Positions 34,501 to 63,846 of a stretch of DNA of 64,000 bases are shown here, in pieces; position 1 is the first letter of the stretch; the number at the start of each line of letters is the position of its first letter. The stretch comes from Paraconexibacter algicola (lineage in GTDB: Bacteria > Actinomycetota > Thermoleophilia > Solirubrobacterales > Solirubrobacteraceae). A program made the translations under genes and the position numbers. The stretch is taken from positions 2,872,978-2,936,977 of the forward strand of contig NZ_PYYB01000001.1 in assembly GCF_003044185.1 (NCBI RefSeq), read 5' to 3'. Under the pieces are notes generated by a model that was given only the letters and a program-made list of their open reading frames with translations, was not told the DNA's origin and made no database searches.

Positions 34501-34551
34501 ACGGATGTCGTGGGGTGCGAGCCCGGTGCGCCCGGCGTCGCGTCCATGGCC

Positions 34552-34595
34552 GGTCACACGATCTTCACCGCACGGTCACCGGCCGGTCACGGCAG
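34552..34595 (+). promoter_or_regulatory. PHO box: four 11-bp direct repeats
   Basis: Four contiguous 11-bp units begin with GGTCAC, CTTCAC, GGTCAC and GGTCAC at 34552, 34563, 34574 and 34585. The block ends 28 bp before the ATG at 34624. The spacing is one helical turn and the core matches the actinobacterial PhoP unit (GTTCACCnnnn). Confidence 0.75.
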
Positions 34596-43878: not shown

Positions 43879-43913
43879 TTCCCCGTCGCGGCGGAACCGT
43901 TCGGGCCCGCCGC

Positions 43914-43957
43914 GTTCACCGCCTGGTCACGGGCTGGTGGCAGCCGCTTCACAAACG
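43914..43957 (+). promoter_or_regulatory. PHO box: four 11-bp repeats before the PHP-GT operon
   Basis: Units begin GTTCAC (43914), GGTCAC (43925), GGTGGC (43936, weak) and CTTCAC (43947), exactly 11 bp apart. TAGCCG at 43965 is a possible -10. The start codon is 63 bp after the box. Confidence 0.7.
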
Positions 43958-49624: not shown

Positions 49625-51148
49625 TCAGCGGTCGCCGTCGGCGGCCGGGGCCGCCAGGACCTTCGGGCCGAAGCCCTGGACGGCCGGGTCAGCGGCGAGC
49701 CCGAGCCGGTCGAGGCCGAACAGGTCCTCGAGCGTGCGGAGCAGCGCGAGGTGGTCGTAGGGCTTGTCCTGCACCGTGCCCGCGGTCACGAACGGGGAGA
49801 GGACGACCGCGCCGGTGCGTCCGCCGCCCGGCACGCCGTCGGGGCGGCCGCTGCAGCACGGGCGGGCGTCGGCGAACGGCCCGGTCGCGGGCGCCTGGTC
49901 CCAGACGACGATCACGAGACCGTCCTTGCGGTGGGCCGCCGTGCCGGTGAGCTTCGGCACGAGCGTCGCGAGGAACGCGTCGGCGGCCGCCGGTCCCGAC
50001 GGGCGCCCGTCCGGGCAGGGGACCTCGATGCCGCTGTCGCAGACGTCGGGCACGACGAGCGAGAAGTCGGGGATCGCGTCGTCGCCGGCGGCGAGGTCGC
50101 GGTCGAGCTGGCCGAGGTCGACGACGCTGCCGCAGTCCGCCCCGGCCGTGACGGAGGCGAACCACAAGGCGGGGACGCGCGCGGTCGCGAACGCGTCCCC
50201 GGGGCGGGGCTGCAGGCCCGCCGGGTCGGGCCGGTCGAGCTCCGGTGCGCGGCACGAGTCCACGCCGGTGGCGCCGAGCGCGCCCGCGTAGACCTTCCAC
50301 GTGCGGCCCGCGCCGGTCAGCTGGTTCAGCAGCGACGGCGTCGCCTCCGGCAGCACGCACGTGCCCGCGGTCGGGGTCGTGCAGCCGGCGAGCTGCTCCG
50401 GGGTGGCGGCGAGGCCGCCGAGCAGCGCGACGCCGTTGCCGATCGCGCCGCGGGTGACCGCGTGGTAGCGCGGCAGGACGAGCCCCTCGGCGGCGAGCGT
50501 CCGCGCGACGTACGGCATCGGGGAGTCGGGGCCGAAGGTGCGCTCCGACCGCCCGTCGGCCATCCACACGACCGTGACCTTGCCGACCGTCGGGAGCGCC
50601 GGGCGCGCCGGGCCGGCGGTGGTCGGAACGTCCCCGGTGGCGGGGTCCTGGTCGGTGGCGGGGGCGTCCGTCGGCTCCTCGTCGGCGGCGGGCTCCTCGG
50701 CCGCCGGGGCCGGCGCGTCCGTCGCCGGAGCGCCGACCGCCGGGGCGGGGGCCGGGTCAACGGTGACCGCGGGCGCGTCCGTGGCGGGCTCCTCCGCGGC
50801 GGTGCCGGGGGCGGGGGTCGGCGCGGGGGCGGGTGCGAGCAGCGGCGCCGGGGCGGGCGCGGCGGCGAGCGGTCCGGCCGCCGGGCCGACCACGACGACC
50901 GGGTCGCCGGTGGCGGCCAGCGAGCTGTCCGGTCCCGGCCCGGAGGCCAGGCCGATCCCGATCCCGAGCGCGAGCACCGCGCCCGAGGCGCCCGCCGCCG
51001 CCCGGGTCGAGAGCGTCAGGCGCGCCGGACGGCCGGCGCCGTCGGGCGCGTCCGGGTCGGTCGTGGGCGCCCAGGGCCAGGCGCGGTCGGGGAAGCGCTG
51101 CTCCGCCCAGGCGCGCACGACATCCAGCGGCGGACGGTCGCGGTGCAT
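49625..51148 (-). CDS. Membrane-anchored phosphoesterase-superfamily protein
   Basis: This 507-residue protein has a cytoplasmic N-terminus (MHRDRPPLDVVRAWAEQRFPD), one membrane helix (AAAGASGAVLALGIGIGLA, about 48-66), a 120-residue Pro/Ala/Asp linker, and a C-terminal domain of the phosphoesterase (acid phosphatase/phospholipase C-like) superfamily. That domain includes VTVVWMADGRSERTFGPDSPMP, RYHAVTRGAIGNGVALLGG, LVIVVWDQAP and VVLSPFVTAGTVQDKPYDHLALLRTLEDLFGL. The last region is strongly diagnostic. It lacks the usual N-terminal metal-binding ENxS/T motif: here the equivalent reads WMADGRSER, so activity is uncertain. It is the last gene of the pst operon, 22 bp after the hydrolase gene. 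Confidence 0.8.
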   Translation of the reverse strand: MHRDRPPLDVVRAWAEQRFPDRAWPWAPTTDPDAPDGAGRPARLTLSTRAAAGASGAVLALGIGIGLASGPGPDSSLAATGDPVVVVGPAAGPLAAAPAPAPLLAPAPAPTPAPGTAAEEPATDAPAVTVDPAPAPAVGAPATDAPAPAAEEPAADEEPTDAPATDQDPATGDVPTTAGPARPALPTVGKVTVVWMADGRSERTFGPDSPMPYVARTLAAEGLVLPRYHAVTRGAIGNGVALLGGLAATPEQLAGCTTPTAGTCVLPEATPSLLNQLTGAGRTWKVYAGALGATGVDSCRAPELDRPDPAGLQPRPGDAFATARVPALWFASVTAGADCGSVVDLGQLDRDLAAGDDAIPDFSLVVPDVCDSGIEVPCPDGRPSGPAAADAFLATLVPKLTGTAAHRKDGLVIVVWDQAPATGPFADARPCCSGRPDGVPGGGRTGAVVLSPFVTAGTVQDKPYDHLALLRTLEDLFGLDRLGLAADPAVQGFGPKVLAAPAADGDR

Positions 51149-51170
51149 CGTGATCTGGCCGGCCCGGGCG

Positions 51171-53717
51171 TCAGCCGTCGTCGCCCGCGCGCACGGGGGC
51201 GACCGGGATCGACACGTCCGACGGCGCCGTGGCGACCGAGGGGTTGTCGAGCTGGCCGAGACGCTCGATGAGCGTGGTCCACTGGTTCGGCTTCAGCACC
51301 GCGTCGATCTGCTGCCCCAGCTGACCGGTGCCCGCCACCTGCGGACGGAAGCCCACGTGGATGTGGTCGGCGTGGTCGGGGAGCGCGAGCGTGTTGTCGG
51401 TGCCCTCGAACGCCATGAGGCTGATGATCTGGTGCGGCTTCATCGTGCCCTGCAGGGTCAGCAGCCGGCGGATCACGAGGTCCGTGACGGACCCTTCGCC
51501 CTGATGCCCGAGAACCGGGATGCCGTTGACCGTCGCGATGTCCATGGCGGTCCCCGTAGTGTGCTCGGAGACGTTGCCGGAGCTTGTGTAATACCCGTGA
51601 CCGCAGCGCAGCGAGGTGATGCCCAGCTCCAGGCCGGAGGCGGCGAGGAACTCGAGCGTCGCCAGCACGCGCCGGTCGACGACCCCGGCGCGGATGTCGT
51701 CGCGACCGCACGGGTAGATGTCCAGCCGCCGGTTGTCCAGGACGCGCCGCTGCAGCGCCTCCTTGCCGAGCAGCAGGATCTGGCCGATCGACGGGGTCTT
51801 GGCGTCCGGGCCGAACAGCGGGTTCTCGCCCTTGGCCCGGTAGACCGCGGTGGACTCCAGGAGCTTCCAGCCGTCGAGGATCGGCTTGGGGTCGATGCGC
51901 GGCGCGCCGCGACCGGCGGGCCGGATCTCGAACCGCAGGTGCGACGCGACCTTCGGCGTCGGACGGGCGAGCACGCCGAGGGTGGAGCCGGCGAGCACGC
52001 GCGAGCCCTCCTTGAGCGCGACGCGGACGAGCTTCGTGCCCTGCGCGACCTGCGGGCCGGTGGCACCGACGACGGCCGGGTCGACCTCGGTCGCGGGCGC
52101 GGCGTCGGCCGGGGACTGGGCCAGCTGGCGCGCGCCGCCGGCGCGGTACGCGGCGGGCCGCTGCGGGTTGGCGAACAGCCGCTCCTTGCCCGCGGCGGCC
52201 TCGGCGCGCACCGGGGCGGCGGGGGCGTCCGCGGTGGCGACGGGCACGTCGGCGGCGGTCGGCGGCAGCGCGGTGGTCGCGACCCCGGCGGCCCGGGCGG
52301 CCCGGAGGTTCTCGGCGAGCTCGGAGCGGGCCGGCGCGACCGGCACCGCCGGGGCGACCGACGCGCCGCGGGTGCGGAACGCGGGGACGGACGCCTTCGG
52401 CCGCGGGGCGGTGCTCGCCGGTGCGGCGGGCGCCGGGTCCAGCGGCAGCGGTCGTGCGCGCAGGCCGGTGCGGCGGGCGGCGTCCTGCTCGCCCTCGCGC
52501 GGCACCAGGTGCGTGGCGGCGACCCGGCCGAGATGCGCATAGGTGTACGTGTTGCCGTAGACGTCGCGCAGCTGCACGAACCGGCCCAGGCGGGCGGACC
52601 GGCCGATGCGGACGATCTCGCCGTCCTGCACCGCGACGGCGGGCGAGCCGGCCTTCGCGAACACGTCGATCCCGCGGCGGCCGGCGGTCGACTCGACGAG
52701 CCGCGCGGCGTTGCGGCCGCGGCGGACGCGCTGCGTCGCCTCGCGCTCGGACAGGTCGTCGGCGTAGGTGGCCTTCGCGGCGACCGGGAACAGCCCCTGG
52801 GTCAGGCCGGTCAGCGAGCCGACGAGGTCGGCGGGCAACCCGCCGATCAGCCGGGCGCGCATCAGGACGCTCTCGACGTACCAGTCGGCGTGGTTGTAGG
52901 CGAAGATCGCCTTGCGGATGTCCTCGTCGGCGCCGGCGGCCTTCAGGTACCGGGCGGCGGCGAAGATCGCGTCGACCGGGTTGTACGGGTCCTTCGCGCC
53001 GTCGCGGTTGGCGTCGACCCCGTAGGCCTTCCAGGTCGCGGGCATGAACTGCATCCAGCCCAGTGCGCCGGCCGTGGAGACGTTGAGGTTGCGGCCGTAG
53101 TCGGTCTCGATCTCGTTGATCGCCGCGAGGATCTCCCAGCGCACCCCGTACTCGATCCCGGCCGCCTGGTAGATCGGCAGCAGGAACGGCGGGATCCGGA
53201 ACTTCTCGATCAGGAAGTTCGGCACGCCCTCGGGCGCGACGCCCGGCAGCGCGAGCGTGAAGGTCGGGTTGTCCGTGGACGGGGAGCCGTCGGCGTTGCG
53301 GCCCTCGCCGGTGAGGCGCTGCTCCTCGGCGGCGCGGTCGGCGGCCTCGTCGGTCTCGTCCTGCGTGCGCTCGTCCTGCTCGGCGGCGTCCTGCGCCGCC
53401 TGCTCGGCCGCCTCGCGACGCTCGGCGGTCTCGCGGCGCGCACGGTCGCGCTCGCGGTCCTTCGCGGTGGGCGTCCCGACGACCGCGGGCCGCTCGTCCT
53501 CGCGCTCCGGGCGCGGGGTGGGCGTCGGGTCGGGCGCGCCGACGACCGCAGGGCCCTCGTCGGGCGTGGCGGTCGGCGAGGGCGCCGCGGACGGCGTCCC
53601 GGTCGGCCCGGTCGGGGCGTCCTGGGCGAGCGACGGCGCGACCCCGGCACCCAGCCCGGCGGCCCCGAGGAGACCGGCCGCGGCGAGGCCTGCGGTGATC
53701 CTGGACCGGTCGCTCAC
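51171..53717 (-). CDS. Three-domain secreted peptidoglycan hydrolase (SLT, LytM-like, M15-like)
   Basis: This 848-residue exported protein has a signal peptide (TAGLAAAGLLGAAGLGAGVAPSLAQ) and an acidic coiled linker. A lytic transglycosylase domain lies at about 185-340 (VRWEILAAINEIETDYGRN with the catalytic Glu, then GALGWMQFMPATWKAYG). An M23/LytM-like domain is split at about 349-400 (GIDVFAKAGSP, NTYTYAHLG) and 562-605 (SHLRFEIRPAG); its usual first His and the HxH pair are missing (HLRF), so it is probably inactive. An M15-like D,D-carboxypeptidase domain lies at about 670-790 (SEHTTGTAMDIAT, DHADHIHVGF), with all His/Asp metal ligands present. The GTG start overlaps the upstream stop (GTGA). 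Cutting peptidoglycan as part of a phosphate operon is unusual. Confidence 0.85.
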   Translation of the reverse strand: MSDRSRITAGLAAAGLLGAAGLGAGVAPSLAQDAPTGPTGTPSAAPSPTATPDEGPAVVGAPDPTPTPRPEREDERPAVVGTPTAKDRERDRARRETAERREAAEQAAQDAAEQDERTQDETDEAADRAAEEQRLTGEGRNADGSPSTDNPTFTLALPGVAPEGVPNFLIEKFRIPPFLLPIYQAAGIEYGVRWEILAAINEIETDYGRNLNVSTAGALGWMQFMPATWKAYGVDANRDGAKDPYNPVDAIFAAARYLKAAGADEDIRKAIFAYNHADWYVESVLMRARLIGGLPADLVGSLTGLTQGLFPVAAKATYADDLSEREATQRVRRGRNAARLVESTAGRRGIDVFAKAGSPAVAVQDGEIVRIGRSARLGRFVQLRDVYGNTYTYAHLGRVAATHLVPREGEQDAARRTGLRARPLPLDPAPAAPASTAPRPKASVPAFRTRGASVAPAVPVAPARSELAENLRAARAAGVATTALPPTAADVPVATADAPAAPVRAEAAAGKERLFANPQRPAAYRAGGARQLAQSPADAAPATEVDPAVVGATGPQVAQGTKLVRVALKEGSRVLAGSTLGVLARPTPKVASHLRFEIRPAGRGAPRIDPKPILDGWKLLESTAVYRAKGENPLFGPDAKTPSIGQILLLGKEALQRRVLDNRRLDIYPCGRDDIRAGVVDRRVLATLEFLAASGLELGITSLRCGHGYYTSSGNVSEHTTGTAMDIATVNGIPVLGHQGEGSVTDLVIRRLLTLQGTMKPHQIISLMAFEGTDNTLALPDHADHIHVGFRPQVAGTGQLGQQIDAVLKPNQWTTLIERLGQLDNPSVATAPSDVSIPVAPVRAGDDG

Positions 53718-54130
53718 GCCGACATGGTGACACCGGTGGGCAGAAGCTGCGCCCCACACTGCCAGCAGAAGGCCGCGCCGTGCGCGTAGAGCCCTCCGCA
53801 GCTGGGGCAGGCGCCCGCGGCGCCGGCGTCCTCGAGCCGCACGAGCCGCTCGGCCTCGGCGAGCTGCGCGTCGACCTCCTGCAGGCGCGCGGCGCGCTGC
53901 ACGAGCACGTCGAGACGGAAGTGGTCGCGGATCGCCATCTCGTAGGTGAGACCGCCGAGGTCCCACTGCAGCTCGGCGACCTCGCGGGCCAGCTCGTCGC
54001 GGCGGGCGACGAGCTCGGGCTGGGTCAGCGCGGCGGTGCCGCCCGGGGGCAGCGGGTCGGGCCCGGCCGGCGGGACGCCGCCGGTGATCCGGTCGCGGAC
54101 GGTGCGCATGGTGTCGGTCAGGGGGCTCAT
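53714..54130 (-). CDS. Small zinc-ribbon protein with coiled-coil
   Basis: This 138-residue protein has no signal peptide. A helical segment (RRDELAREVAELQWDLGGLTYEM, about 42-64) and another (AARLQEVDAQLAEAERLVRL) flank a central basic part. The C-terminus holds ACPSCGGLYAHGAAFCWQCGAQL, a CxxC-x10-13-CxxC zinc ribbon. It is coupled on both sides by 4-nt overlaps (ATGA and GTGA). The zinc ribbon recurs in the next gene upstream, so the two may interact. No named family known to me. Confidence 0.78.
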   Translation of the reverse strand: MSPLTDTMRTVRDRITGGVPPAGPDPLPPGGTAALTQPELVARRDELAREVAELQWDLGGLTYEMAIRDHFRLDVLVQRAARLQEVDAQLAEAERLVRLEDAGAAGACPSCGGLYAHGAAFCWQCGAQLLPTGVTMSA

Positions 54131-55116
54131 CCGAAGGTCTCCGCGTCGCTGCCGCCGCCGGCGGGCTTGCTGTCCTTGGCGGGGGGCGGCCCCTCGCTCT
54201 GGATCTTGTCCGGCAGCTTCTTGCTCTCCTTCTGGAACGTCTCGGGTGCGGCGTTCTCCTGCTGGCCCAGCGTGTCGTCGAGCGGCGCGGCCTCCGGGTC
54301 CGCGGCGGGCGCGTCCTCGGTGGTGTCCTGCTTGTCGTCGGCCGTTCCCCCGGCGGCCTGAGCCGCGGAGGCCGAGACCCGGACGACCGTCGCATCGGGG
54401 AACGATGCGGTGACGGCGTCGAGCGCGGCCTGCGCGTCCTTGCGCGCATCGTAGACGCCGCTGTAGACGAGATAGGCACCCGGGTCCAGCGACGGGTAGG
54501 CGTCGGTGTCCAGCGCCCCGACGGACGGGGCGCCCTTGGCGGTCGCGTCGGCCTTCGCGGCGGCGACCGCCGCCGGGGTCGTGCCGTCCTTGGGCAGCGT
54601 CTGCAGCCGGATCGTCCAGCCCTCGGTGCCCGCGGGCCAGTCGGCGGTGAACGTGGCGGGCGCCGCGGTCCCGGTGGGGGCGGCCGCGACGGCCGCGGCG
54701 GGCGCGGCGACGCCACCGACGGTGATCACGGTCGGCCGCTTGCCGTCGCCGTCGCCTGCGTTGCCGATCGCCACGCCGACCCCGAGGGCCAGGAGCATCG
54801 TCGCCGCCGCGGCGACGAGCGTCACCGGGCGGTCCGACGAGGCGAGGACCCCGCCGCGCCGCGCGGCGGGCGGCGGCACGGCGGCGGCGGCGAGCCGCAG
54901 CGTGCCGGGCGGGTCCGGGGGCACGGGCGGTGAGGCGTGCCCGCCGACCGCCGCGGCGGTGCCGGGCTCGTCGAGGAACCGCAGCGGCGCGTCGGCGCGA
55001 CGGGCCCCGCAGTTCAGGCAGTAGCGCTGGTCGGTCGCCAGCGGCGCCGAGCAGGACCGGCAGGTCTCGCCGGGACGGCCCAGGCGCGGCTGGTGCAGGA
55101 GGTGGGTGTCGGTCAC
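54127..55116 (-). CDS. Zinc-ribbon membrane protein with SPOR-like periplasmic domain
   Basis: This 329-residue protein has an N-terminal zinc ribbon (GETCRSCSAPLATDQRYCLNCGARRAD, about 15-41), a membrane helix (TLVAAAATMLLALGVGVAI, about 98-116) and an extracytoplasmic region. There, WTIRLQTLPKDGTTPAAVAAAKADATAKG and AYLVYSGVYDARKDAQAAL look like the beta-alpha-beta repeats of a SPOR peptidoglycan-binding domain (about 168-245). The C-terminus is acidic and Pro-rich. It could link a cytoplasmic zinc ribbon to the cell wall, and sits between the pst lipoprotein and the hydrolase. GTG start. Confidence 0.78.
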   Translation of the reverse strand: MTDTHLLHQPRLGRPGETCRSCSAPLATDQRYCLNCGARRADAPLRFLDEPGTAAAVGGHASPPVPPDPPGTLRLAAAAVPPPAARRGGVLASSDRPVTLVAAAATMLLALGVGVAIGNAGDGDGKRPTVITVGGVAAPAAAVAAAPTGTAAPATFTADWPAGTEGWTIRLQTLPKDGTTPAAVAAAKADATAKGAPSVGALDTDAYPSLDPGAYLVYSGVYDARKDAQAALDAVTASFPDATVVRVSASAAQAAGGTADDKQDTTEDAPAADPEAAPLDDTLGQQENAAPETFQKESKKLPDKIQSEGPPPAKDSKPAGGGSDAETFG

Positions 55117-55841
55117 GGGAGCACGGTGGGGAGGACGGAGGTCTCGAGCTCCGCGCCGGCGGGATCGCCGACGAAGAACACCTGGTAGGCGACGGTCGCC
55201 CGCGCGCGCAGGCGCGGCACCTGGCCGCGTCCGGCGGCGACGATCCGCCCGCCGCGGCGCGCGGCCACGGTCACGATGAGGTTGCGCTGCTCGACGGTGG
55301 ACTCGTTCGTCACGCGGCCGATCGCGGACGCGCCGCTGGAGGGGTCCTGCTCCAGGCCGCCGGGCGTCAGCCGCAGCCGCGGGATCTCGCCGCTGCGGGG
55401 GCGTGCCTCGCCGGCCTTCACGGTGGCGGCGGCGGCCTTGCCGTCGGTGAGCAGCTGGTCGTTGACCCACAGGACGGGCTCGCCCGCGGGCAGCACCGGC
55501 AGGCCGGTGAGGGACGGGTCGAGCCCGGGCGCGTCGTTGGCGCCGATCGCCCGCCCGGCCCGGTCGGTGACGGTCACGGCGAGCGGGACGCGGGCGAGCG
55601 CGCGGCTGCCGCGGGCGCGGATCTCGACGGCGACCGCGGTCCCGTTCTCGTCCTGCAGCACGGTCGGCTCGCCGAGCCGGACGTCCGGGTTGGACGCGCC
55701 GGTCACGGTGACGCCCTGCTGGTTCAGCAGCGTCGCCCTGGACTCCTTCTCGAGCCGGGCGGACACGCTCTGGGTGGACTCGCAGCCCGCCGCGAGGACG
55801 GCGAGCGCGAGCGCGCACGACCCCACGACGGTCCGTCTCAT
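55113..55841 (-). CDS. Lipoprotein of the pst operon
   Basis: This 242-residue protein has a lipobox (ALALAVLAAGCES, Cys at about residue 20), so it is probably anchored outside the cytoplasmic membrane. The rest is beta-rich: EPTVLQDENGTAVAVEIRARG, ARVPLAVTVTDRAGRAIGAND, VTNESTVEQRNLIVTVAARRGGRIVAAG. The last segment looks like an Ig-like or CARDB-type sandwich. It has no phosphate-binding PstS motif. It begins with an ATG overlapping the pstB stop and ends overlapping the next GTG. The function is unknown, but its place suggests a role at the PstSCAB complex or the cell wall. Confidence 0.8.
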   Translation of the reverse strand: MRRTVVGSCALALAVLAAGCESTQSVSARLEKESRATLLNQQGVTVTGASNPDVRLGEPTVLQDENGTAVAVEIRARGSRALARVPLAVTVTDRAGRAIGANDAPGLDPSLTGLPVLPAGEPVLWVNDQLLTDGKAAAATVKAGEARPRSGEIPRLRLTPGGLEQDPSSGASAIGRVTNESTVEQRNLIVTVAARRGGRIVAAGRGQVPRLRARATVAYQVFFVGDPAGAELETSVLPTVLP

Positions 55842-56749
55842 CCGAACTCCCCGCTGACGTAGTCCTGGGTGCGGCGGGCCCGCGGACGGTGGAAGACCTG
55901 GTCGGCGGTGCCGTACTCGACGAGCTCGCCGAGGTACATGAAGCCGACGTGGTCGGCGATCCGCTGCGCCTGCTGGAGGTTGTGGGTGACGATCACGACC
56001 GCGACCTCCTCGCGCAGCTGCACGATCAGGTCCTCGATCGTCGCGGTCGACTGCGGGTCGAGCGCCGAGCACGGCTCGTCGAGCAGCAGCACCTCGGGGC
56101 GCGCGGCGAGCGCACGGGCGATGCAGAGCCGCTGCTGCTGGCCGCCGGAGAGCCGCAGCGCCGGGTGGTCGAGGTCGTCCTGCACCTCGCGCAGCAGGCC
56201 CGCGCGGCGCAGCGCGTCCTCGACGGGCTCGCGCAGCTCCTTCTTCCCGGGCCGCTTGGAGCCCTGCTCGCGCAGGGCGTAGGCGACGTTGTCGAAGACG
56301 CTCATCGGGAACGGGTTGGGCTGCTGGAAGACCATGCTGACGCGGCGGCGCAGCCGCGTGACCTCGAGCAGGTCGACGTCCTCGCCGTCGAGGAGGATGC
56401 GCCCGGAGCGCGTGGCGGTCGCGGTCAGCTCGGTGAGCCGGTTCAGCGACCGCAGCAGCGTCGTCTTGCCGCAGCCCGACGGGCCGATCAGCGCGAGCAC
56501 CTCGCCCTGACGGACGGGGATCGTCACGTTGTTGACCGCGACCTTCTCGCCGTAGGCGATCGTCAGGCCGTCGACGCGCATGCGCTCGCGCCCGTAGGCG
56601 GGCGCGCTCGGCGTGCCGGTCGCGGTCGCCTCGCCCGGGAGGGCGGGGACGACGCCGCGGTCGGCGGGCGCCGCCGGCCCGCGCGGCACGACGTCCGCGT
56701 CGGGGGTCGTGCCGATGCGGCGGATGGGCGGGGGAATCAGCGGATCCAC
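55838..56749 (-). CDS. pstB: Phosphate ABC transporter ATP-binding protein
   Basis: This 303-residue ATPase powers phosphate import with PstA and PstC. GPSGCGKTTLLRSLNRL (about 89-105) is the PstB Walker A, LSGGQQQRLCIARALA (about 200) the signature, and LLLDEPCSALDPQSTATIE (about 220) the Walker B, with FQQPNPFPMSVFDNVAY as the PstB-specific Q loop. The ATPase itself starts at about residue 56 (ERMRVDGLTIAYG); the preceding Pro/Ala-rich stretch is an extension not usual in PstB. If translation really begins at GTG 56749, the extension is present; an internal start would remove it. Overlaps pstA by 13 bp. Confidence 0.95.
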   Translation of the reverse strand: MDPLIPPPIRRIGTTPDADVVPRGPAAPADRGVVPALPGEATATGTPSAPAYGRERMRVDGLTIAYGEKVAVNNVTIPVRQGEVLALIGPSGCGKTTLLRSLNRLTELTATATRSGRILLDGEDVDLLEVTRLRRRVSMVFQQPNPFPMSVFDNVAYALREQGSKRPGKKELREPVEDALRRAGLLREVQDDLDHPALRLSGGQQQRLCIARALAARPEVLLLDEPCSALDPQSTATIEDLIVQLREEVAVVIVTHNLQQAQRIADHVGFMYLGELVEYGTADQVFHRPRARRTQDYVSGEFG

Positions 56750-57720
56750 GATGGCGACTCCGCGCGGCCGCGCGTGATGCGCGTGACCGCGGCGTTCAGG
56801 AACAGGACGATGAGCAGCAGGACGAACGCGGCGGCGTAGGCCTTCTCCGGTGCGTTGCCGTCCCCCGCGGGGGAGTTCGTGTAGACGTAGCTCGTGAGCG
56901 TCGACCCGGTGCCCTGGAGGAACGAGATCACCGGCGTCTCGCCGGCGGGGTCGAACTCCAAGGACGCGCCGAGCAGCACGACGACGATGGCGGTGTCGCC
57001 GATGATCCGGCCCATGCCGAGCGTCGCGCCGGCCGCGATGCCCGGGCGCGCGGCGGGCAGCAGGACCCGGCGGATCGTCGCCGCGCGGGTCTTGCCGAGC
57101 GCGTAGGACGCCTCGCGCACGTGCGACGGGATCTGCTGCAGCGCCTCCCGGGTCGTGCCGACGACGAGCGGCAGCGCGATGAGGCTCATCATCAGCCCGG
57201 CGATGATGAAGCTGCGGCCGAACACGCCGCCGCCCTCGGAGGTGAAGCTCAGCGGCGCGAAGATCCCGTTGCTGAACACGGTCAGGCCGAACAGCGCGAG
57301 CACGATGCTCGGGGTTCCCGCGATGACCTCGACGCCCGACTCGACGGCGCGCGCGAGGCCCGCGGGGCGTCCGTACTCGCTGAGCCAGATGCCGACCGCG
57401 GCGCCGAGCGGCGCGGCGATCGAGATGCCGATCGTCGTCAGCAGCATCGTGCCGACGAGCGGGTCGAAGAAGCCACCGGACTTCGCCTGGTCGTTGTCCG
57501 CGACCGGCGACTCGACGAACAGCCGCGGCTCGAGGTATTGGGCGCCGCGCACGGCGAGGTAGACGAGGATCGTCGCGGTGATCAGCAGCAGGCCGATCCC
57601 GGCGACGTAGCAGGCGGCGAGGCCGAGCCGGTCGATCAGCGGCCAGGAGGCGCTGGACTCGACCGGGCGGGTGCGGCGCGCGGGCGGCCGCTGCGAGGGG
57701 GGCGGGGAGGCGACGGCCAT
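56737..57720 (-). CDS. pstA: Phosphate ABC transporter permease PstA
   Basis: This 327-residue permease has about six membrane helices, starting with GLAACYVAGIGLLLITATILVYLAV. The binding-protein-dependent transport motif is EASYALGKTRAATIRRVLLPAARPGIAAG (about 207-235), and VEVIAGTPSIVLALFGLTVF is typical of PstA. The ATG at 57720 overlaps the pstC stop codon. It forms the channel with PstC. Confidence 0.95.
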   Translation of the reverse strand: MAVASPPPSQRPPARRTRPVESSASWPLIDRLGLAACYVAGIGLLLITATILVYLAVRGAQYLEPRLFVESPVADNDQAKSGGFFDPLVGTMLLTTIGISIAAPLGAAVGIWLSEYGRPAGLARAVESGVEVIAGTPSIVLALFGLTVFSNGIFAPLSFTSEGGGVFGRSFIIAGLMMSLIALPLVVGTTREALQQIPSHVREASYALGKTRAATIRRVLLPAARPGIAAGATLGMGRIIGDTAIVVVLLGASLEFDPAGETPVISFLQGTGSTLTSYVYTNSPAGDGNAPEKAYAAAFVLLLIVLFLNAAVTRITRGRAESPSWIR

Positions 57721-58697
57721 CAGGACCGGATCCCGTACTTGCGCATCGGCAGCTTCGCGGCGTACCCGGCCATCGACAGGAGCGCGCTGGAGATCAGCAG
57801 CAGGGCCCCGAACGCGTAGAGCGTGTCGCCGAGCGTGCCGCGCGAGAGGCCCTCGGAGTTGTCGACGATCGTCGCGGCGAGCGGGCGGACCGGCTCGAAG
57901 AAGAAGGTGAGGCCGTCGAGCGGGTTCGGCGCGAACCCGCGCGACCCGGAGACCATCGAGAGCATGATCGCCTCGCCCAGGGCGCGGGCGGTGGCGAGCA
58001 CGGCGGCGGCGACGATCGCGGGGCGGATCGTCCGCAGCCCGATCTTCGTGATCGTGCGCCAGCGGTTGACGCCCAGCGCGGCGGAGCCCTCCAGCCACGA
58101 CTTCGGGACGCCGCGCAGGGCCTCCGCGATGATCGCGATCATGATCGGCGAGATCATCACGACGAGCACGAGCGTCCCGACGAGCAGCGAGTTGCCGTTG
58201 AGCTGCACGACGAACCCGACGCTCTCGCGGCGCTCGTCGCCGATGAGGTCGTTGACGAACGGGACGAGGATGAGCAGGCCGAGCAGGCCGTAGACGACGG
58301 ACGGGACGGCGGCCAGGAGCCGGATCGCCGGCTCCATCACGCGCCGCACGCGCTCCGGGGCGAACTCGACGAGGAAGATCGCGGCGAGCGTCGAGAAGAC
58401 GATCCCGATCAGCATCGCGAACCCGGTCGTCAGCAGGGTCCCCCACAGCAGCGGCCACGCGTGCAGCGTGTACTCGCCGTCGACGGAGCCGTCGAAGATC
58501 GCCTGCAGCTCGACGTCGACGTCGTGGCCGCCCGCGAACCAGGAGAGGCCGTTCTCGCTGAACGACGGCCACGCCTTCGCGAGGACGAAGATGATCATCC
58601 CGGCGATCAGCGCGAGCACCAGCGACGAGACGCCGCCGAGGATCGCGCCGACGCGCCGGTCGGACCAGCGGCCCAGCTGTCGGTCCCCCGACGACAA
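57720..58697 (-). CDS. pstC: Phosphate ABC transporter permease PstC
   Basis: This 325-residue permease has six membrane helices, the first in AILGGVSSLVLALIAGMIIFVLA. It has the PstC hallmarks IRLLAAVPSVVYGLLGLLILVPF and GSAALGVNRWRTITKIGLRTIRPAIVAA (about 209-236). The start is TTG at 58697, 1 nt beyond the pstS stop; there is no ATG or GTG in a better place. Confidence 0.95.
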   Translation of the reverse strand: MSSGDRQLGRWSDRRVGAILGGVSSLVLALIAGMIIFVLAKAWPSFSENGLSWFAGGHDVDVELQAIFDGSVDGEYTLHAWPLLWGTLLTTGFAMLIGIVFSTLAAIFLVEFAPERVRRVMEPAIRLLAAVPSVVYGLLGLLILVPFVNDLIGDERRESVGFVVQLNGNSLLVGTLVLVVMISPIMIAIIAEALRGVPKSWLEGSAALGVNRWRTITKIGLRTIRPAIVAAAVLATARALGEAIMLSMVSGSRGFAPNPLDGLTFFFEPVRPLAATIVDNSEGLSRGTLGDTLYAFGALLLISSALLSMAGYAAKLPMRKYGIRS

Positions 58698-58698
58698 G

Positions 58699-59529
58699 CT
58701 AGGCCCCGGCCTTCAGGGGGACCCACTCGGACGCGATGATCCGCTGCGCGGCCGCGTTGCCCTTGACCCAGCGCAGGAACTTGCCGGTCGCGCCGGTCGC
58801 CTTGCCGCGGGTGACCATCCAGAAGTTGCGGACGCCCGGGTAGGTCTCGGCCTTCGCGTTGCGCAGCGTGCAGGCGACGCCCTTGTAGGGGACGGCGTGC
58901 GTGCCGGCGGTGGCCTCGAAGGTCAGGTAGCCGATGCCGCGCTCGTCGCTGGCGACCGCCTGCTGGACGAGGCCGGTCTCCTTCTTCTGCTGGGCGCCCG
59001 CGGAGACGCGGAGGTTCTGGCCCATGAAGATGTTCTGGAACGCGTCCTGCGTACCCGAGGAGGGCGTGCGCGCGTAGAGGCTGATGATCCCGGTGACCGT
59101 GCTGCCCGGGACGTCCTCCCAGCGCTTGACCTTGCCGGAGAAGATCGCCTGCACGTCGGCCTGCGAGAGGTTCGGCAGCGGGTTCTTGCGGTTCGTGACG
59201 ATGCACAGGCCGTCACGGGCGATCTTGTTGAAGACGAGGCCGCCCGGGTCGGAGCGGACCGGGTCGCGCGAGACGTTGCCGATCGACACGCGGCCCTTCG
59301 CGACGTCGGTGACGCCGATGTCCGAGCCGCCCTGCAGGAGGCTGAACTGCGCGGCGCCGGGGAAGGCCTTGAGGTAGCCCTGGATCAGCTTCTTGGCGAG
59401 CGGCTTGATCGAGGTCGAGCCGCTCATCGTGATCTTCGGCTTGGCCGCCGGGGCGGTCGCCGGGACGACGGCGGCGGGCACGGCGCACGCGGCGGTCGCG
59501 AGCAGGACGGCGGGGAGGGGACGGCGCAC
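58699..59529 (-). CDS. pstS: Phosphate-binding protein PstS
   Basis: This 276-residue exported protein has a signal peptide (PLPAVLLATAACAVPAAVVPA) with a Cys at position 13; no good lipobox follows (AACAV), so it may or may not be a lipoprotein. The mature part begins KPKITMSGSTSIKPLAKKL (phosphate-binding Ser/Thr), with SLLQGGSDIGVTDVAKGRVSIGN and ARTPSSGTQDAFQ (SGT phosphate loop). At 276 residues it is shorter than the usual 320-370. The GTG at 59529 follows AAGGAG. A four-unit PHO box lies 119 bp upstream. First gene of the nine-gene operon. Confidence 0.92.
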   Translation of the reverse strand: MRRPLPAVLLATAACAVPAAVVPATAPAAKPKITMSGSTSIKPLAKKLIQGYLKAFPGAAQFSLLQGGSDIGVTDVAKGRVSIGNVSRDPVRSDPGGLVFNKIARDGLCIVTNRKNPLPNLSQADVQAIFSGKVKRWEDVPGSTVTGIISLYARTPSSGTQDAFQNIFMGQNLRVSAGAQQKKETGLVQQAVASDERGIGYLTFEATAGTHAVPYKGVACTLRNAKAETYPGVRNFWMVTRGKATGATGKFLRWVKGNAAAQRIIASEWVPLKAGA

Positions 59530-59647: not shown

Positions 59648-59691
59648 CGGTCGTGAACAACGGGTGGCCGTCTGGAGAAGAACTGGTGAAC
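59648..59691 (-). promoter_or_regulatory. PHO box: four 11-bp repeats before pstS
   Basis: On the minus strand units start GTTCAC (59691), CTTCTC (59680), GGCCAC (59669) and GTTCAC (59658), exactly 11 bp apart. It directs the pst operon. A second box for the divergent gene is 20 bp away. Confidence 0.8.
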
Positions 59692-59711: not shown

Positions 59712-59744
59712 CTTCACCAGAACTTCCCCAGTCGTTCACACCGG
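59712..59744 (+). promoter_or_regulatory. PHO box: three 11-bp repeats before the secreted propeller operon
   Basis: Units start CTTCAC (59712), CTTCCC (59723) and GTTCAC (59734), exactly 11 bp apart on the plus strand and ending 32 bp before the ATG at 59777. Confidence 0.75.
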
Positions 59745-59776: not shown

Positions 59777-61762
59777 ATGCGTGCCGGTCAGCACCGCACC
59801 GCCCGCCGGGCGGCCCTCACCCTCGGCTGCGCCCTGCTCGCCCTCCCGGCGACGGCGCCGCCGCGCGCCGACGCGCGGATCACGCCCGTCACCCCGATCG
59901 CGGGGCCGAGCACCGCGATCGTCGAGCTCGGCGGCGTCGCCATGGCACCCGACGGCACCGGCGGTCTCGTCTTCCGCCGCCGCGACGAGGACGGGCGCAC
60001 GCACATCTACGCGTCGCGGTTCGACGGGGTCACGTGGGCCGCGCCCGTGCGCGTCGACCGCGGCCAGCGGTTCGACTCCTCCTGGCCGGCGATCGCCGCC
60101 GCGGGCGGCGGCCGGCTCGTCGTCGTCTGGGTGCAGGAGTTCGGCGTCGCCACCGACCGCCTGTTCGCGGCCACGCTCGACCCCGGCGCCACCGGCTTCC
60201 AGGCCCCGGTCCCCGTCGACCTCAACGTCGGCGAGGCGATCGCGACCTATCCCACGGTCGCGATGAACCGCGCGGGCACCGCCTACGTCGTCTACCGGGT
60301 CGTCAACGCCACCCCGCAGCAGAACACGTCGCTGCCGTCGGACACGGTCGACGCCGACGTGCGCGTCGCCCGCACCAGCGGCCAGTTCTGGTCGGTGCTG
60401 GGCGCCCCGATGGACCGCGACATCGCCGTCCCCGTCGCCACCCCGACCGCGCTGAACGCTCCGCGCATCGGCGTCGACGTCGCGGGCAACGCGGTCGTCG
60501 CCTGGCAGGAGCCCGACGCCACCCAGACCGATCGCGTCTTCGCGCGGCGCCTGTTCGGCGGGACGATGGGCATCGCGCTCCAGGTCTCCCCGTCGGAGCG
60601 CGACGGCCGCCCGGTCCGCGGGCGGACCGACCAGCTCGCGCTCGCCGTCGCGGGCTTCGGCCAGGCGGTCGTCGGCTACCGCGAGCTCGGCGAGGGCGAC
60701 GAGGCCGCCGCCGACGCCCGCGTCTGGACCAACGCCATCCCCGAGTCCTTCAGCGACAAGGCCGCGGCGTTCGCGGGCCCGCGCCTGGCTGACGGCGGAC
60801 CGGCCGCCCCCGACCAGCCGCTCTCCGCCCCGCCCGGACCGGTGAGCGTCGCGACGACCCCCGCGGGCGCGGTCGCCGCCGGCGTGGCCGTCGGGCCGGC
60901 GTCGCTCGTCGTCTCCGGGGACGACCGCAGCGTCGGCGCCCCGGTGCGCCTGGACGACGGCACCTCGACGGCCTCCGGCGACCCGGTCGTCGGGCTCTCC
61001 TCCGCCGACGCGGCCGCCGCCTACGCCTGGCGGGTGCAGCAGGGCCGGGTCGGGGCGGTCGCCGCGCGCGAGGTCCGCGCCGACGGCGTCCCGACGACGC
61101 GCGTGCTCTCCGCACCGCGCGGCGGCCGCGTCACCGACCTGCGCCTCGCGGGCTCCGGCGTCGGGGACGCCGCGATCGCCTGGGTGCAGGGGGAGGGGGA
61201 CGGGACCCAGATCGCCGCCGCGGTGATCGACGCGCCGCCCGCCCAGTTCGCGGCGCAGGCGCCGCTCACCTGGGTCCGCACCCCGACCGCGAAGCTCGCC
61301 TGGGACACGGCGCCGCACGCGATCGGCGGCGTCAGCTACGACCTCACCGTCGACGACGAGCAGGTCGCGACCGGCCTCACCCGCACCCGCACCGAGCTCC
61401 CGCTCGCCGATGTCGAGGACGGCCGCCGCACGCTCGTGGTCATCGCGCGCGACAGCGCCGGCCAGGAGACCGAGAGCATCCCGACCGAGCTGCGCGTCGA
61501 CCGCACGGCGCCGACCGTCACGGTCGGCCGCAGCGGCCGCCGCGGCGTGCGCGTCGCGATCACCGACGGCGCGGCGGGGGAGTCCTCCGGCCCGAGCGCC
61601 GCGGGCACCACCGTCCGCTTCGGGGACGGCCGCGGGACCCGCGGTCGCGTCAGCCGGATCGTCCACACCTACCGGAAGGCCGGGCGCTACCGCGTGACCG
61701 TCACGACCCGCGACCGCGTCGGCAACCGGCGCGTCCTGCGCCGCACGGTGGTGGTTCGGTGA
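59777..61762 (+). CDS. Secreted beta-propeller-like protein with C-terminal Ig/PKD-like domain
   Basis: This 661-residue exported protein has a signal peptide (RRAALTLGCALLALPATAPPRADA). Residues about 40-480 contain repeating blades (LGGVAMAPDGTGGLVFRRRD, AAAGGGRLVVVWVQEFGV, ARIGVDVAGNAVVAWQEPDA-type), where a VVVWQE or VVAWQE-like strand recurs. The C-terminus is two Ig/PKD-like repeats (AGRYRVTVTTRDRVGN). No catalytic motif is seen. It stands under a PHO box divergent from pstS and may bind or act on phosphate-containing material at the surface. I have no family name. Confidence 0.75.
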   Translation: MRAGQHRTARRAALTLGCALLALPATAPPRADARITPVTPIAGPSTAIVELGGVAMAPDGTGGLVFRRRDEDGRTHIYASRFDGVTWAAPVRVDRGQRFDSSWPAIAAAGGGRLVVVWVQEFGVATDRLFAATLDPGATGFQAPVPVDLNVGEAIATYPTVAMNRAGTAYVVYRVVNATPQQNTSLPSDTVDADVRVARTSGQFWSVLGAPMDRDIAVPVATPTALNAPRIGVDVAGNAVVAWQEPDATQTDRVFARRLFGGTMGIALQVSPSERDGRPVRGRTDQLALAVAGFGQAVVGYRELGEGDEAAADARVWTNAIPESFSDKAAAFAGPRLADGGPAAPDQPLSAPPGPVSVATTPAGAVAAGVAVGPASLVVSGDDRSVGAPVRLDDGTSTASGDPVVGLSSADAAAAYAWRVQQGRVGAVAAREVRADGVPTTRVLSAPRGGRVTDLRLAGSGVGDAAIAWVQGEGDGTQIAAAVIDAPPAQFAAQAPLTWVRTPTAKLAWDTAPHAIGGVSYDLTVDDEQVATGLTRTRTELPLADVEDGRRTLVVIARDSAGQETESIPTELRVDRTAPTVTVGRSGRRGVRVAITDGAAGESSGPSAAGTTVRFGDGRGTRGRVSRIVHTYRKAGRYRVTVTTRDRVGNRRVLRRTVVVR

Positions 61763-63822
61763 GGCGGGCAATCCTCGCCGGCCTCGGCCTCGCGCTGCTG
61801 CTCCCCGGCAGCGCCGGCGCCGCCACCGGCTTCCAGGCCGGCGCCGACCTGCTCAGCAGCTCGCTCGCCCGGCTCGAGCAGGCCGACGACACCACCACGA
61901 ACGTCGCCCTCACCCGCGACGCCCGCTTCGCGCTGATCACGACCCGCGCGACGAACCTGTTCGCCGACGACGACCCCGACCCGCCCGGTCGCACCCGCGC
62001 CGGGGGCGTCTTCCGGCGCGACCTCGCCAGCGGCGCGCTCGAGCTGGTCGCCGCCGGGGACGAGCTCGACGAGGCCACCCGCGAGCTCGTGATCCGCGGC
62101 GCGCGCGGCGCGTCGATCTCCGACGACGGCCGCCTCGTCGCGTTCACCACGAACGCGCCGCTGGTCGCCGCCGACCGCAACGGCAACGCCGACGTGTACG
62201 TGCGCGACCTCGCCGTGCCCCGGGGCGCCCCGGGCGCCTACGAGCTGATCAGCGCCCGCGACGGCGGGGACGTGCCGGCGACCTACGGGGTGCGCGATCC
62301 GGATCTGCCGGGCCGCAACCCGGGCACCGAGACCTACCCGGGCGGTGCGATCTCCGCCGACGGGCGCTTCGTGGTGCTCCGCACGGGCTCGGTGACCTCC
62401 GACCTGCCCGACCGCGCGACCACGGACACGCCCCCGGGCACGCTGCTCGTGCGCGACCGGGCCGAGCGCCGGACGATCCTCGTCACCCGCGAGAGCGAGA
62501 CCGGCGAGCCGGTCGGCGGCGCCACCGGGCCGGCGACGATCAGCGCCGACGGCAGCACCGTCGCGTGGGTGGGGATCCGCGCCGCGCAGCAGACGCGCTT
62601 CCAGCCCGGGGAGAACCGCAACCCGCTCACCGAGCACTACCTGTGGCGGCGCATCGCCGACGGTGCGGCCGCGCGCACCCGGCGCATCACCGGTGCGGTC
62701 GACACCGACGACCCCGCGTGCGACCCCGAGACCACCGTCGAGCCGTCCCCGACGGCCACCGGGCCCTGCTACGGGCCGCTGGCCGACCAGGAGGCGGGCC
62801 GCGTCGGGATCGGGGCGCGCGCCCCCCAGCTCTCCGCGGACGGGCGCACGGTCGTGTTCCTCGCGGCGGGCGCGTTGCGGCCGGACAGCACCGGCTTCGA
62901 GGGCGTCGAGGTCTTCACGACCTCGATGGCGCCCGGGGCCACGCGCAAGGACGCGACCACGCAGCTGACGCGCGGCGCGCTCTCCGGCGACCCCGCGGCC
63001 GCGGCCACGATCGACGACCTCGCCTGGTCGGCGGACGGCCGCTGGCTGGCGCTGCTGACCAACCGCACCCGCTTCACGTTCCCGGCGCTCACCCCGATCG
63101 GCACGTTCCGGCGCACCCCGGACACCCGCGAGCTGCTGCTCGCCGACCTGCAGCGGCGGACGGTCGAGCGCGTCGTGACCGACCGCGGCGGGGGCGACAT
63201 CGACGCCGACATCGGCCGCCAGCCCGCGATCGCCGCGGACGGCGCCACGCTCGCGTTCGTGTCCAGCACCCCGGACCTGTTCTTCGGCGACGCCAACGAG
63301 CAGGCCGACGCCTGGCTCGTGCGCCGCGCGCCCCCGGTCGTGGCGGAGCCACCGCCCCCGGAGGAGAACCAGGGCCAGATCGTCGTCACGCAGACCGCCG
63401 AGCCCGACGAGCCCGACCTGGGCCTCGGCGTCCGCGACCGCCGGGACGGAACCGTCCGCGTCTCGGTCCGCGCCCCGGAGCCTGGCGCGTTCACCGTCTT
63501 CGCCCGGGCCGGCAAGCCCCTGCGCACAGTGGCGCGCGCGACGCGCACGGTCCGCAAGGCGGGGCGCGCCGCGTTCCTGCTGAAGCTCACGGCGGCCGAG
63601 CGCCGACGCCTGGCGCGCAGTCGCCGTCTCAGCGCCACGGTCCGCGTGCGCTTCGTCCCGACCGCTCCCGGAGCGCGTGCGCTGACCGAGGTCGGCAGCG
63701 TCCGCTACACGCTGCGCCGCGCCGCCTCGAAGACGAGCAGGACCCCGCCGAAGACCAAGACCCGGGCTCGTGGTGCATCGAACTGGAGAACTTCTGGTGA
63801 ACGCGATGGGGCCGACCTGTGA
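61759..63822 (+). CDS. Secreted TolB/WD40-like beta-propeller protein
   Basis: This 687-residue exported protein has a signal peptide (AILAGLGLALLLPGSAGAAT). Blades contain the TolB-like pattern xSxDGRxVAFxS: ASISDDGRLVAFTTNAP, AISADGRFVVLRTGS, TISADGSTVAWVG, QLSADGRTVVFLAAG, AWSADGRWLALLTNR and AIAADGATLAFVSSTP. A charged C-terminal region and a beta-domain (VRVSVRAPEPGAFTVFARAGK) complete it. It begins with GTG overlapping the previous stop (GTGA), so the two secreted propellers are one operon. The last codons carry PHO-like repeats of the next promoter region. Confidence 0.78.
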   Translation: MRRAILAGLGLALLLPGSAGAATGFQAGADLLSSSLARLEQADDTTTNVALTRDARFALITTRATNLFADDDPDPPGRTRAGGVFRRDLASGALELVAAGDELDEATRELVIRGARGASISDDGRLVAFTTNAPLVAADRNGNADVYVRDLAVPRGAPGAYELISARDGGDVPATYGVRDPDLPGRNPGTETYPGGAISADGRFVVLRTGSVTSDLPDRATTDTPPGTLLVRDRAERRTILVTRESETGEPVGGATGPATISADGSTVAWVGIRAAQQTRFQPGENRNPLTEHYLWRRIADGAAARTRRITGAVDTDDPACDPETTVEPSPTATGPCYGPLADQEAGRVGIGARAPQLSADGRTVVFLAAGALRPDSTGFEGVEVFTTSMAPGATRKDATTQLTRGALSGDPAAAATIDDLAWSADGRWLALLTNRTRFTFPALTPIGTFRRTPDTRELLLADLQRRTVERVVTDRGGGDIDADIGRQPAIAADGATLAFVSSTPDLFFGDANEQADAWLVRRAPPVVAEPPPPEENQGQIVVTQTAEPDEPDLGLGVRDRRDGTVRVSVRAPEPGAFTVFARAGKPLRTVARATRTVRKAGRAAFLLKLTAAERRRLARSRRLSATVRVRFVPTAPGARALTEVGSVRYTLRRAASKTSRTPPKTKTRARGASNWRTSGERDGADL

Positions 63823-63846
63823 CCGACCGGTGGCCGTTCGGTGAAC
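63781..63846 (-). promoter_or_regulatory. Six-unit PHO-box-like array upstream of the right-edge gene
   Basis: Read on the minus strand, units with 11-bp spacing start GTTCAC (63846), GGCCAC (63835), GGTCAC (63824), GGCCCC (63813, weak), GTTCAC (63802) and GTTCTC (63791). The nearest downstream gene is on the plus strand at 63930, so the array is in the opposite orientation to the others relative to its gene. Confidence 0.6.

What the first reader, a model, noticed from the sequence alone, without database searches (positions are those of the whole stretch)
49625..59529. A nine-gene pst operon couples phosphate import to cell-wall and zinc-ribbon proteins, without phoU
On the minus strand, pstS, pstC, pstA, pstB, a lipoprotein, a zinc-ribbon/SPOR membrane protein, a zinc-ribbon protein, a three-domain peptidoglycan hydrolase and a phosphoesterase-superfamily protein follow each other. 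The junctions are 4-nt (ATGA or GTGA) overlaps or gaps of at most 22 bp. The usual phoU is missing. The arrangement suggests that phosphate starvation induces local cell-wall opening or wall-polymer recycling, for example to reach wall teichoic acid-like phosphate.
Basis: partly seen in the sequence, partly recalled or inferred. Interest (0 to 1): 0.72.

Follow-up and report, generated by a model that had tools for sequence, protein, structure and literature searches.

The report
Second phosphate importer with zinc-ribbon partners
This soil-type actinobacterium carries a second, phosphate-starvation-controlled phosphate importer that is inherited across its order together with a dedicated lipoprotein, two zinc-ribbon proteins and an apparently dead phosphatase, an accessory set I found no description of; the wall-degrading enzyme in the same operon is a local addition.

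Summary
The nine genes are real and tightly packed. The cluster is a second Pst system (Pst2). The genome also has a canonical pstSCAB-phoU operon about 21 kb to the right, so phoU is absent only from this cluster.

The core pstS-pstC-pstA-pstB-lipoprotein-zrSPOR-zr is conserved across at least two families of the order. The zinc-ribbon protein zr is found in four families. In a named-genome scan, 65 of 76 zr loci carry pst genes; most exceptions are cut contigs.

A four-unit GTTCACC/11-nt PHO box lies upstream of pstS2. The same motif in this genome precedes phoD twice, phoX, a SapM-type phosphatase, a PhoB-type regulator and pstS1. Starvation control is therefore well supported.

Corrections:
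- The peptidoglycan hydrolase is an order-wide family, in the operon only in this strain among those examined; its M23 part has lost its zinc ligands.
- The "phosphoesterase" has the AcpA/phospholipase C fold but has lost nearly all catalytic residues.
- SPOR is sub-threshold and present in only 5 of about 16 orthologs.
- PstS2 is not lipidated, whereas the canonical PstS is.

Best reading: a Pho-regulated accessory Pst whose soluble PstS is served by a dedicated lipoprotein and zinc-ribbon membrane proteins. The mechanism is inferred. The wall-opening idea is weakly supported.

The parts
59648..59691 (-). PHO box: four 11-nt direct repeats GTTCACCAGTT CTTCTCCAGAC GGCCACCCGTT GTTCACGACCG, 119-162 bp upstream of the pstS2 start
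   Evidence: Best four-unit score (23 of 28) in the whole window, above all 3000 random 250-bp windows (maximum 22). The motif marks the Pho regulon of this genome. Consensus GTTCACC with 11-nt units: PMC4415409.
59712..59744 (+). Divergent three-unit PHO-like box CTTCACCAGAA CTTCCCCAGTC GTTCACACCGG facing the surface-protein gene 59777-61762
   Evidence: Joint best three-unit score (17 of 21) on the + strand of the window
58699..59529 (-). pstS2: phosphate-binding protein, secreted and not lipidated
   Evidence: PF12849 E=1.2e-30; best PDB match 4gd5, a phosphate-binding protein, 4.7e-24; no lipobox in any orthologue shown, lipobox in PstS1
57720..58697 (-). pstC2: permease
   Evidence: TIGR02138 207.5 bits, cut-off 196.45
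56737..57720 (-). pstA2: permease
   Evidence: TIGR00974 194.8 bits, cut-off 193.45; 53-65% identical to a distinct Pst2 clade, about 33% to the genome's own PstA1
55838..56749 (-). pstB2: ATPase with a Pst2-specific N-terminal extension (PPPIRRI motif in most orthologs)
   Evidence: TIGR00972 333 bits, cut-off 343.2; extension seen in most orthologs, the motif absent from own PstB1
55113..55841 (-). lipoprotein, lipobox LAAGC20, helix plus beta-sandwich (Ig-like) region
   Evidence: Cys20 invariant in 18 orthologs; AlphaFold2 mean pLDDT 89.6; hits to Ig-like modules only, low TM-scores
54127..55116 (-). zrSPOR: N-terminal zinc ribbon, one predicted membrane helix, extracytoplasmic tail ending PPxKDxKPxGGG; SPOR-like insert not core
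   Evidence: Zn_Ribbon_1 19.0 bits, cut-off 25; SPOR 15.3 bits, cut-off 21; alignment
53714..54130 (-). zr: coiled-coil-like segment (LGGxxYEMAxRDH) plus C-terminal zinc ribbon
   Evidence: Best conserved accessory gene; CxxC/CxxC nearly invariant in 14 orthologs; strong hits only in four families of the order
51171..53717 (-). pgh: lytic transglycosylase + degenerate M23 + M15/extensin-like C-terminal domain
   Evidence: SLT_2 2.5e-16, M23 1.8e-11; M23 ligands lost in all aligned orthologs, C-terminal H..D..HxH kept; order-wide paralog family
49625..51148 (-). pde: membrane-anchored pseudo-phosphoesterase of the AcpA/SapM/phospholipase C fold
   Evidence: PF04185 1.8e-15, matching profile positions 111-355; catalytic residues lost; fold match 2d1g AcpA, TM 0.69

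Best explanation
The cluster is a second, PhoB/PhoP-regulated Pst importer (Pst2). SHOWN: (a) The genome has a canonical pstSCAB-phoU operon elsewhere. (b) A PHO box of the type that marks this organism's Pho regulon lies upstream of pstS2. (c) pstSCAB2 is inherited as a unit with a lipoprotein and two zinc-ribbon proteins (zrSPOR, zr), usually also with a PF04185-fold protein. (d) PstS2 is secreted and not lipidated. (e) The PF04185-fold protein has lost the residues needed for catalysis. (f) The wall hydrolase is a local addition.

INFERRED: under phosphate limitation PstS2 binds phosphate in the wall space. The lipoprotein, and perhaps the extracytoplasmic tail of zrSPOR, hold PstS2 at the membrane, replacing the lipid anchor that canonical PstS has. 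zrSPOR, zr and the pseudo-phosphoesterase form a membrane-spanning accessory complex next to PstB2 that senses phosphate or a phosphate ester outside and adjusts transport inside, or supports assembly. PhoU from the canonical operon may act in trans or may not be needed. The hydrolase, co-expressed here, would at most loosen the wall locally.
For: Second system and phoU. PHO box: (best four-unit score in the window; also high in homologous loci of about four other lineages). Validation of the motif: searches (12 genome matches against 1 for the reversed control; phoD twice, phoX and the SapM-type phosphatase), with two further sites 85-150 bp upstream of a PhoB-type regulator domain (2953177) and of pstS1 (2953525). 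Conserved cluster. Zinc-ribbon pair next to canonical pst in a variant set. Lipidation contrast. Pseudo-phosphoesterase; essential residues from PMC6635428. Phosphate-binding motifs of PstS2 kept (GSTS, SRD, RTPSSGT).
Against: No experiment shows transport, regulation or complex formation. Some Pst2 paralogs have lost the SGT loop of PstS, so the ligand may not be phosphate everywhere. Many deeper homologous loci show no box matching the GTTCACC consensus. Zinc binding is inferred from cysteine spacing; the Pfam scores are below cut-off. The fold of the lipoprotein does not identify a ligand.
Confidence: 0.55

Rival explanations
1. One reading: phosphate starvation induces local wall opening or wall-polymer recycling; the hydrolase and phosphoesterase release wall phosphate that Pst2 imports.
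For: Both genes lie in the same unit behind a PHO box. The lytic transglycosylase glutamate and the C-terminal peptidase motif look intact. pgh relatives lie within about 10 kb of pst genes in several genomes.
Against: The phosphoesterase lacks catalytic residues. The hydrolase family is order-wide and mostly unlinked to pst, and only 5 of 76 zr loci have it nearby. A lytic transglycosylase does not release phosphate.
Confidence: 0.1
2. Pst2 imports or senses a different oxyanion or phosphate-like ligand, and the accessory proteins serve that ligand.
For: PstS2 is far below the PstS family cut-off (138 against 206.6 bits). The acidic residue of the RxxGSGT loop is replaced. Several paralogous copies have lost SGT (RTSASSLPP, RTSVAGVL) while keeping the module.
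Against: The window copy keeps GSTS, SRD and R..SGT and aligns best to phosphate-binding proteins of known structure. Its PHO box ties it to phosphate limitation.
Confidence: 0.15
3. Ordinary duplicate high-affinity Pst; the conserved neighbours are general envelope proteins carried along without functional coupling to transport.
For: Two Pst systems in one genome are known, for example in Mycobacterium tuberculosis (PMC4996455) and Streptococcus pneumoniae (PMC4913102).
Against: zrSPOR and zr stay with pst genes across the order, often with translational overlaps, and are also found beside canonical pst genes when Pst2 is not in the locus.
Confidence: 0.2

Closest known systems
Canonical PstSCAB-PhoU (E. 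coli; also this genome at C1:2953525-2958125)
   Same: PstS, PstC, PstA and PstB in the same order; PHO box; presumed high-affinity phosphate import
   Different: No phoU in the cluster; PstS not lipidated; PstB N-terminal extension; extra lipoprotein, two zinc-ribbon proteins and a pseudo-phosphoesterase
Second Pst systems of Mycobacterium tuberculosis (PMC4996455) and Streptococcus pneumoniae (PMC4913102)
   Same: Two complete Pst systems in one genome
   Different: The pneumococcal operons each end in a phoU (PMC4913102 abstract); no zinc-ribbon/lipoprotein module found described
SapM / AcpA / phospholipase C superfamily (PF04185)
   Same: Fold (2d1g, TM 0.69 to the query), order of motifs; an apparently intact paralog sits elsewhere in the same genome behind a PHO box
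   Different: Metal ligands, nucleophile and substrate histidines lost in the operon copy; membrane-anchored, with a zinc ribbon in most relatives
YejM/PbgA
   Same: Membrane-tethered extracytoplasmic domain of the alkaline-phosphatase superfamily whose main known role is regulatory; appears among the fold hits (6vat)
   Different: Different family, membrane architecture and process; whether YejM is itself an enzyme is disputed (PMC7576196). Analogy only.

Membership tests
Pst phosphate ABC importer | PstC and PstA permeases at equivalog level | tested here: met
   TIGR02138 207.5 against 196.45; TIGR00974 194.8 against 193.45
Pst phosphate ABC importer | PstB ATPase at equivalog level | tested here: inconclusive
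   TIGR00972 333 against 343.2; still its best family by far
Pst phosphate ABC importer | PstS at family cut-off with phosphate-binding motifs | tested here: inconclusive
   TIGR02136 138 against 206.6; motifs GSTS, SRD and RxxSSGT present
Pst phosphate ABC importer | Phosphate transport | not testable with these tools
   Needs binding and uptake assays
Canonical pst-phoU operon | phoU in the operon | tested here: not met
   phoU only behind the canonical pst operon; in the 76 loci phoU appears only with canonical pst
Pho regulon | PHO box of 11-nt direct repeats at the promoter | tested here: met
   consensus from PMC4415409
Pho regulon | Induction by low phosphate through the PhoB/PhoP-type regulator | not testable with these tools
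   Needs RT-qPCR and regulator binding
PF04185 phosphoesterase (enzyme) | Fold of the AcpA/phospholipase C superfamily | tested here: met
   PF04185 1.8e-15; Foldseek 8k3g 7.8e-15, 2d1g TM 0.69
PF04185 phosphoesterase (enzyme) | Metal ligands E, N, D, E, nucleophile S and substrate-binding H (SapM E59 N60 D238 E239 S95 H160 H204) | tested here: not met
   By alignment to the intact paralog: EN to AD, S to A, DE to DQ, CRHP to CRAP, FHS to FAS in the window copy; the N and the second acidic ligand lost in every ortholog where the column is present
M23 endopeptidase | Zinc ligands HxxxD and HxH | tested here: not met
   RxxxD-type and HxR in the window copy; lost in the other aligned orthologs as well
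Lytic transglycosylase SLT/MltB | SLT domain with its glutamate | tested here: met
   SLT_2 60.2 against 24.3 bits; INE(I/V)ETDYGR motif in all aligned orthologs covering it
SPOR-domain protein | PF05036 at gathering score | tested here: not met
   15.3 against 21 bits; best ortholog 18.9

The most novel reading that the evidence does not exclude
A phosphate-control module that replaces or supplements PhoU: two zinc-ribbon proteins and a membrane-tethered dead phosphatase form a transmembrane complex that reads phosphate or a phosphate ester outside the cell and gates a PhoU-less Pst importer from inside, with PstS docked by a separate lipoprotein instead of its own lipid anchor.
Probability: 0.2. 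Interest if true: 0.8.

Novelty: new variant of a known kind. Interest (0 to 1): 0.52.

Why it matters
Pst importers are usually paired with PhoU. Here a whole bacterial order keeps a second Pst with a different, uncharacterised partner set that stays with pst genes almost without exception. If the partners sense or gate transport, this is a PhoU-independent way to control phosphate import, and a clear case of a dead phosphatase recruited to phosphate physiology. It also names specific unknown proteins for study in a common, poorly studied soil group. The literature searches made here found no description of the module, within an open-access library only.

Tried and rejected
Cell-wall coupling as the core function: rejected as the main reading, because pgh is order-wide and mostly unlinked to pst and near only 5 of 76 zr loci. 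Missing phoU as a genome feature: rejected. Active phosphoesterase: rejected on residues; no sequence match to solved structures for the operon family or for the intact paralog, so the structure link rests on the AlphaFold2 model and fold search. Function of the lipoprotein from fold: only remote Ig-like matches with low TM-scores, no ligand clue. A simple TTCAYC count was too blunt; the four-unit 11-nt score worked. No Rfam family in the region. One search's start-codon choices in homologous loci are automatic, and some ORF ends (for example L046 zr, L045 zrSPOR) are wrong; the tblastn maps do not depend on them.

Full report
1. What is there. The nine minus-strand ORFs exist at the stated place and follow each other with overlaps or gaps of at most 22 bp. 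Junctions: S-C +1, C-A -1, A-B -13, B-lipo -4, lipo-zrSPOR -4, zrSPOR-zr -4, zr-pgh -4, pgh-pde +22. PstS, PstC, PstA and PstB are recognisable. PstC and PstA pass the curated equivalog cut-offs; PstB and PstS fall short, PstS by far.

2. phoU. A search of the whole genome finds a two-domain PhoU at C1:2957499-2958050. It stands behind a canonical pstS (2953525), pstC, pstA and pstB, and is followed by a PhoB-type response regulator. A second PhoB-type winged-helix domain lies at 2953177, just before the canonical pstS, and a DUF47/PhoU_div gene at 2952342. The window's cluster is therefore a second Pst system, with pstS2 about 21 kb from the canonical pstS. Its PstA is about 33% identical to the canonical one but 53-65% identical to a separate Pst2 clade.

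3. Conservation. Among 60 relatives the Pst2-type PstA (E below 1e-60) occurs in a subset, 17 relatives plus the own genome. Loci from these genomes show S-C-A-B-lipo-zrSPOR-zr in the same order and strand, with many 4-nt overlaps: B-lipo 11 of 20, zrSPOR-zr 10 of 14. A class-wide profile search finds strong zr matches (E below 1e-27) only in four families of the own order; other families give matches no better than 1e-19, probably another zinc-ribbon family. A scan of named genomes gave 76 zr loci, nearly all titled Solirubrobacterales or relatives (Solirubrobacter, Conexibacter, Patulibacter, Svornostia). zrSPOR precedes zr in 71 of them. All four pst genes lie upstream on the same strand in 42, and some pst gene in 65. 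Most of the other 11 are contigs cut next to zr; L074 is a clear exception and L132/L133 possible ones. In a variant set the zinc-ribbon pair sits beside canonical pst genes (for example L083, L084, L090, L105). The pde gene is found in 47 of 76 loci, behind zr or divergent from pstS2; pgh in 5.

4. Control. A search for tandem 11-nt units matching GTTCACC, the Streptomyces PHO-box motif (PMC4415409), puts the best four-unit array of the window at 59691-59648, upstream of pstS2. Its score of 23 exceeds all of 3000 random 250-bp stretches. Homologous pstS2 genes of roughly four other lineages carry such arrays at a similar place; many deeper homologs do not. A three-unit array on the other strand (59712-59744) faces the divergent surface-protein gene. 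To test whether this motif is the PHO box of this organism, an exact pattern TTCAC-N6-TTCAC was searched in the genome: 12 matches, 1 with the reversed control. They include two overlapping sites before a PhoB-type regulator and one before the canonical pstS, and sites before two PhoD, one PhoX and one PF04185 phosphatase. That is a recognisable Pho regulon. The pstS2 box has TTCTC in its second unit and is not in this exact list. Starvation control is thus well supported by sequence but not measured.

5. The parts. PstS2 has no lipobox in any orthologue listed, whereas canonical PstS (own genome and the listed relatives) has one. The operon encodes a separate lipoprotein with an invariant Cys20, modelled as a helix followed by a beta-sandwich region (pLDDT 89.6). 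zrSPOR is a zinc ribbon, a hydrophobic helix and a tail with a conserved end; the SPOR-like stretch is optional. zr is the best conserved accessory protein. PstB2 has an N-terminal extension with PPPIRRI in most copies, a motif not seen in the canonical PstB. In most relatives the pde protein also begins with a zinc ribbon and a membrane helix, which the window copy has lost at the ribbon.

6. The phosphoesterase. All orthologs tested match PF04185 only from profile position 105 or later. The AlphaFold2 model of the domain matches fungal and bacterial phospholipase C, AcpA (TM 0.69) and, lower down, YejM. A paralog in the same genome, itself behind a PHO-like site, keeps ENKDYED, SHASLGN, CRHP, FHS and TWDE. 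The operon copy reads ADGRSER, TRGAIGN, CRAP, FAS and VWDQ. In SapM the corresponding E59, N60, S95, H160, H204, D238 and E239 were each essential (PMC6635428); the correspondence is by motif order. The operon copies vary but none keeps the set. It is most likely a pseudoenzyme.

7. The hydrolase. The transglycosylase motif and the C-terminal H..D..HxH look intact, while the M23 domain lacks its ligands in every aligned ortholog. Its C-terminal domain has relatives in 56 of 61 genomes, mostly far from pst genes, and the own genome has a second full-length copy on C2. In this operon it is a local acquisition. The other same-strand cases behind zr (G016, G036) have gaps of several hundred bp.

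8. Mechanism. Shown: a second Pst, PHO box, conserved partner set, unlipidated PstS, pseudo-phosphoesterase. Inferred: docking of soluble PstS2 by the lipoprotein; a membrane-spanning zinc-ribbon complex that senses or gates. Some paralogous operons have lost the SGT phosphate loop of PstS yet keep the module, which leaves room for a different ligand or a sensing role.

9. Verdict. Observation partly confirmed, interpretation partly supported. The interesting content is the conserved, PhoU-less, zinc-ribbon-linked Pst2 module, not wall opening. I found no description of it in the searches made, but those cover only an open-access library.

Noticed in passing
59777-61762 (+) and PHO-like box 59712-59744: Divergent PKD/Ig-like surface protein gene that shares the PHO-box region with pstS2 and may be co-regulated.
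   Followed up: partly
L003:202-1794 (genome C1:2937201-2938793, just past the window end): Another protein with a PstS-like PBP domain (PF12849, 30.7 bits), 530 aa, in the direction of the divergent genes.
   Followed up: partly
63780-63846 (-); 34541-34595 (+); 43892-43957 (+); 39452 (-): Further PHO-like 11-nt arrays: at the end of a PD40-repeat gene, before a sugar-isomerase-like gene, before a PHP_C + glycosyltransferase gene and before a GH31 gene. A few are expected by chance.
   Followed up: partly
L149, L151, L152, L142 (own genome): PHO-type repeats directly before two PhoD, one PhoX and one PF04185 phosphatase: a ready-made view of this organism's Pho regulon.
   Followed up: yes
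L051, L052, L053, L058, L060: PstS2 paralogs that lost the SGT anion-binding loop while their operons keep pstCAB and the lipoprotein.
   Followed up: partly
L064, L066, L080, L081 (titled Bifidobacterium breve MAG) and L132, L134 (titled Chlamydiae): Public contigs carrying Solirubrobacterales Pst2 clusters under titles of unrelated organisms; the titles or bins are probably wrong.
   Followed up: no
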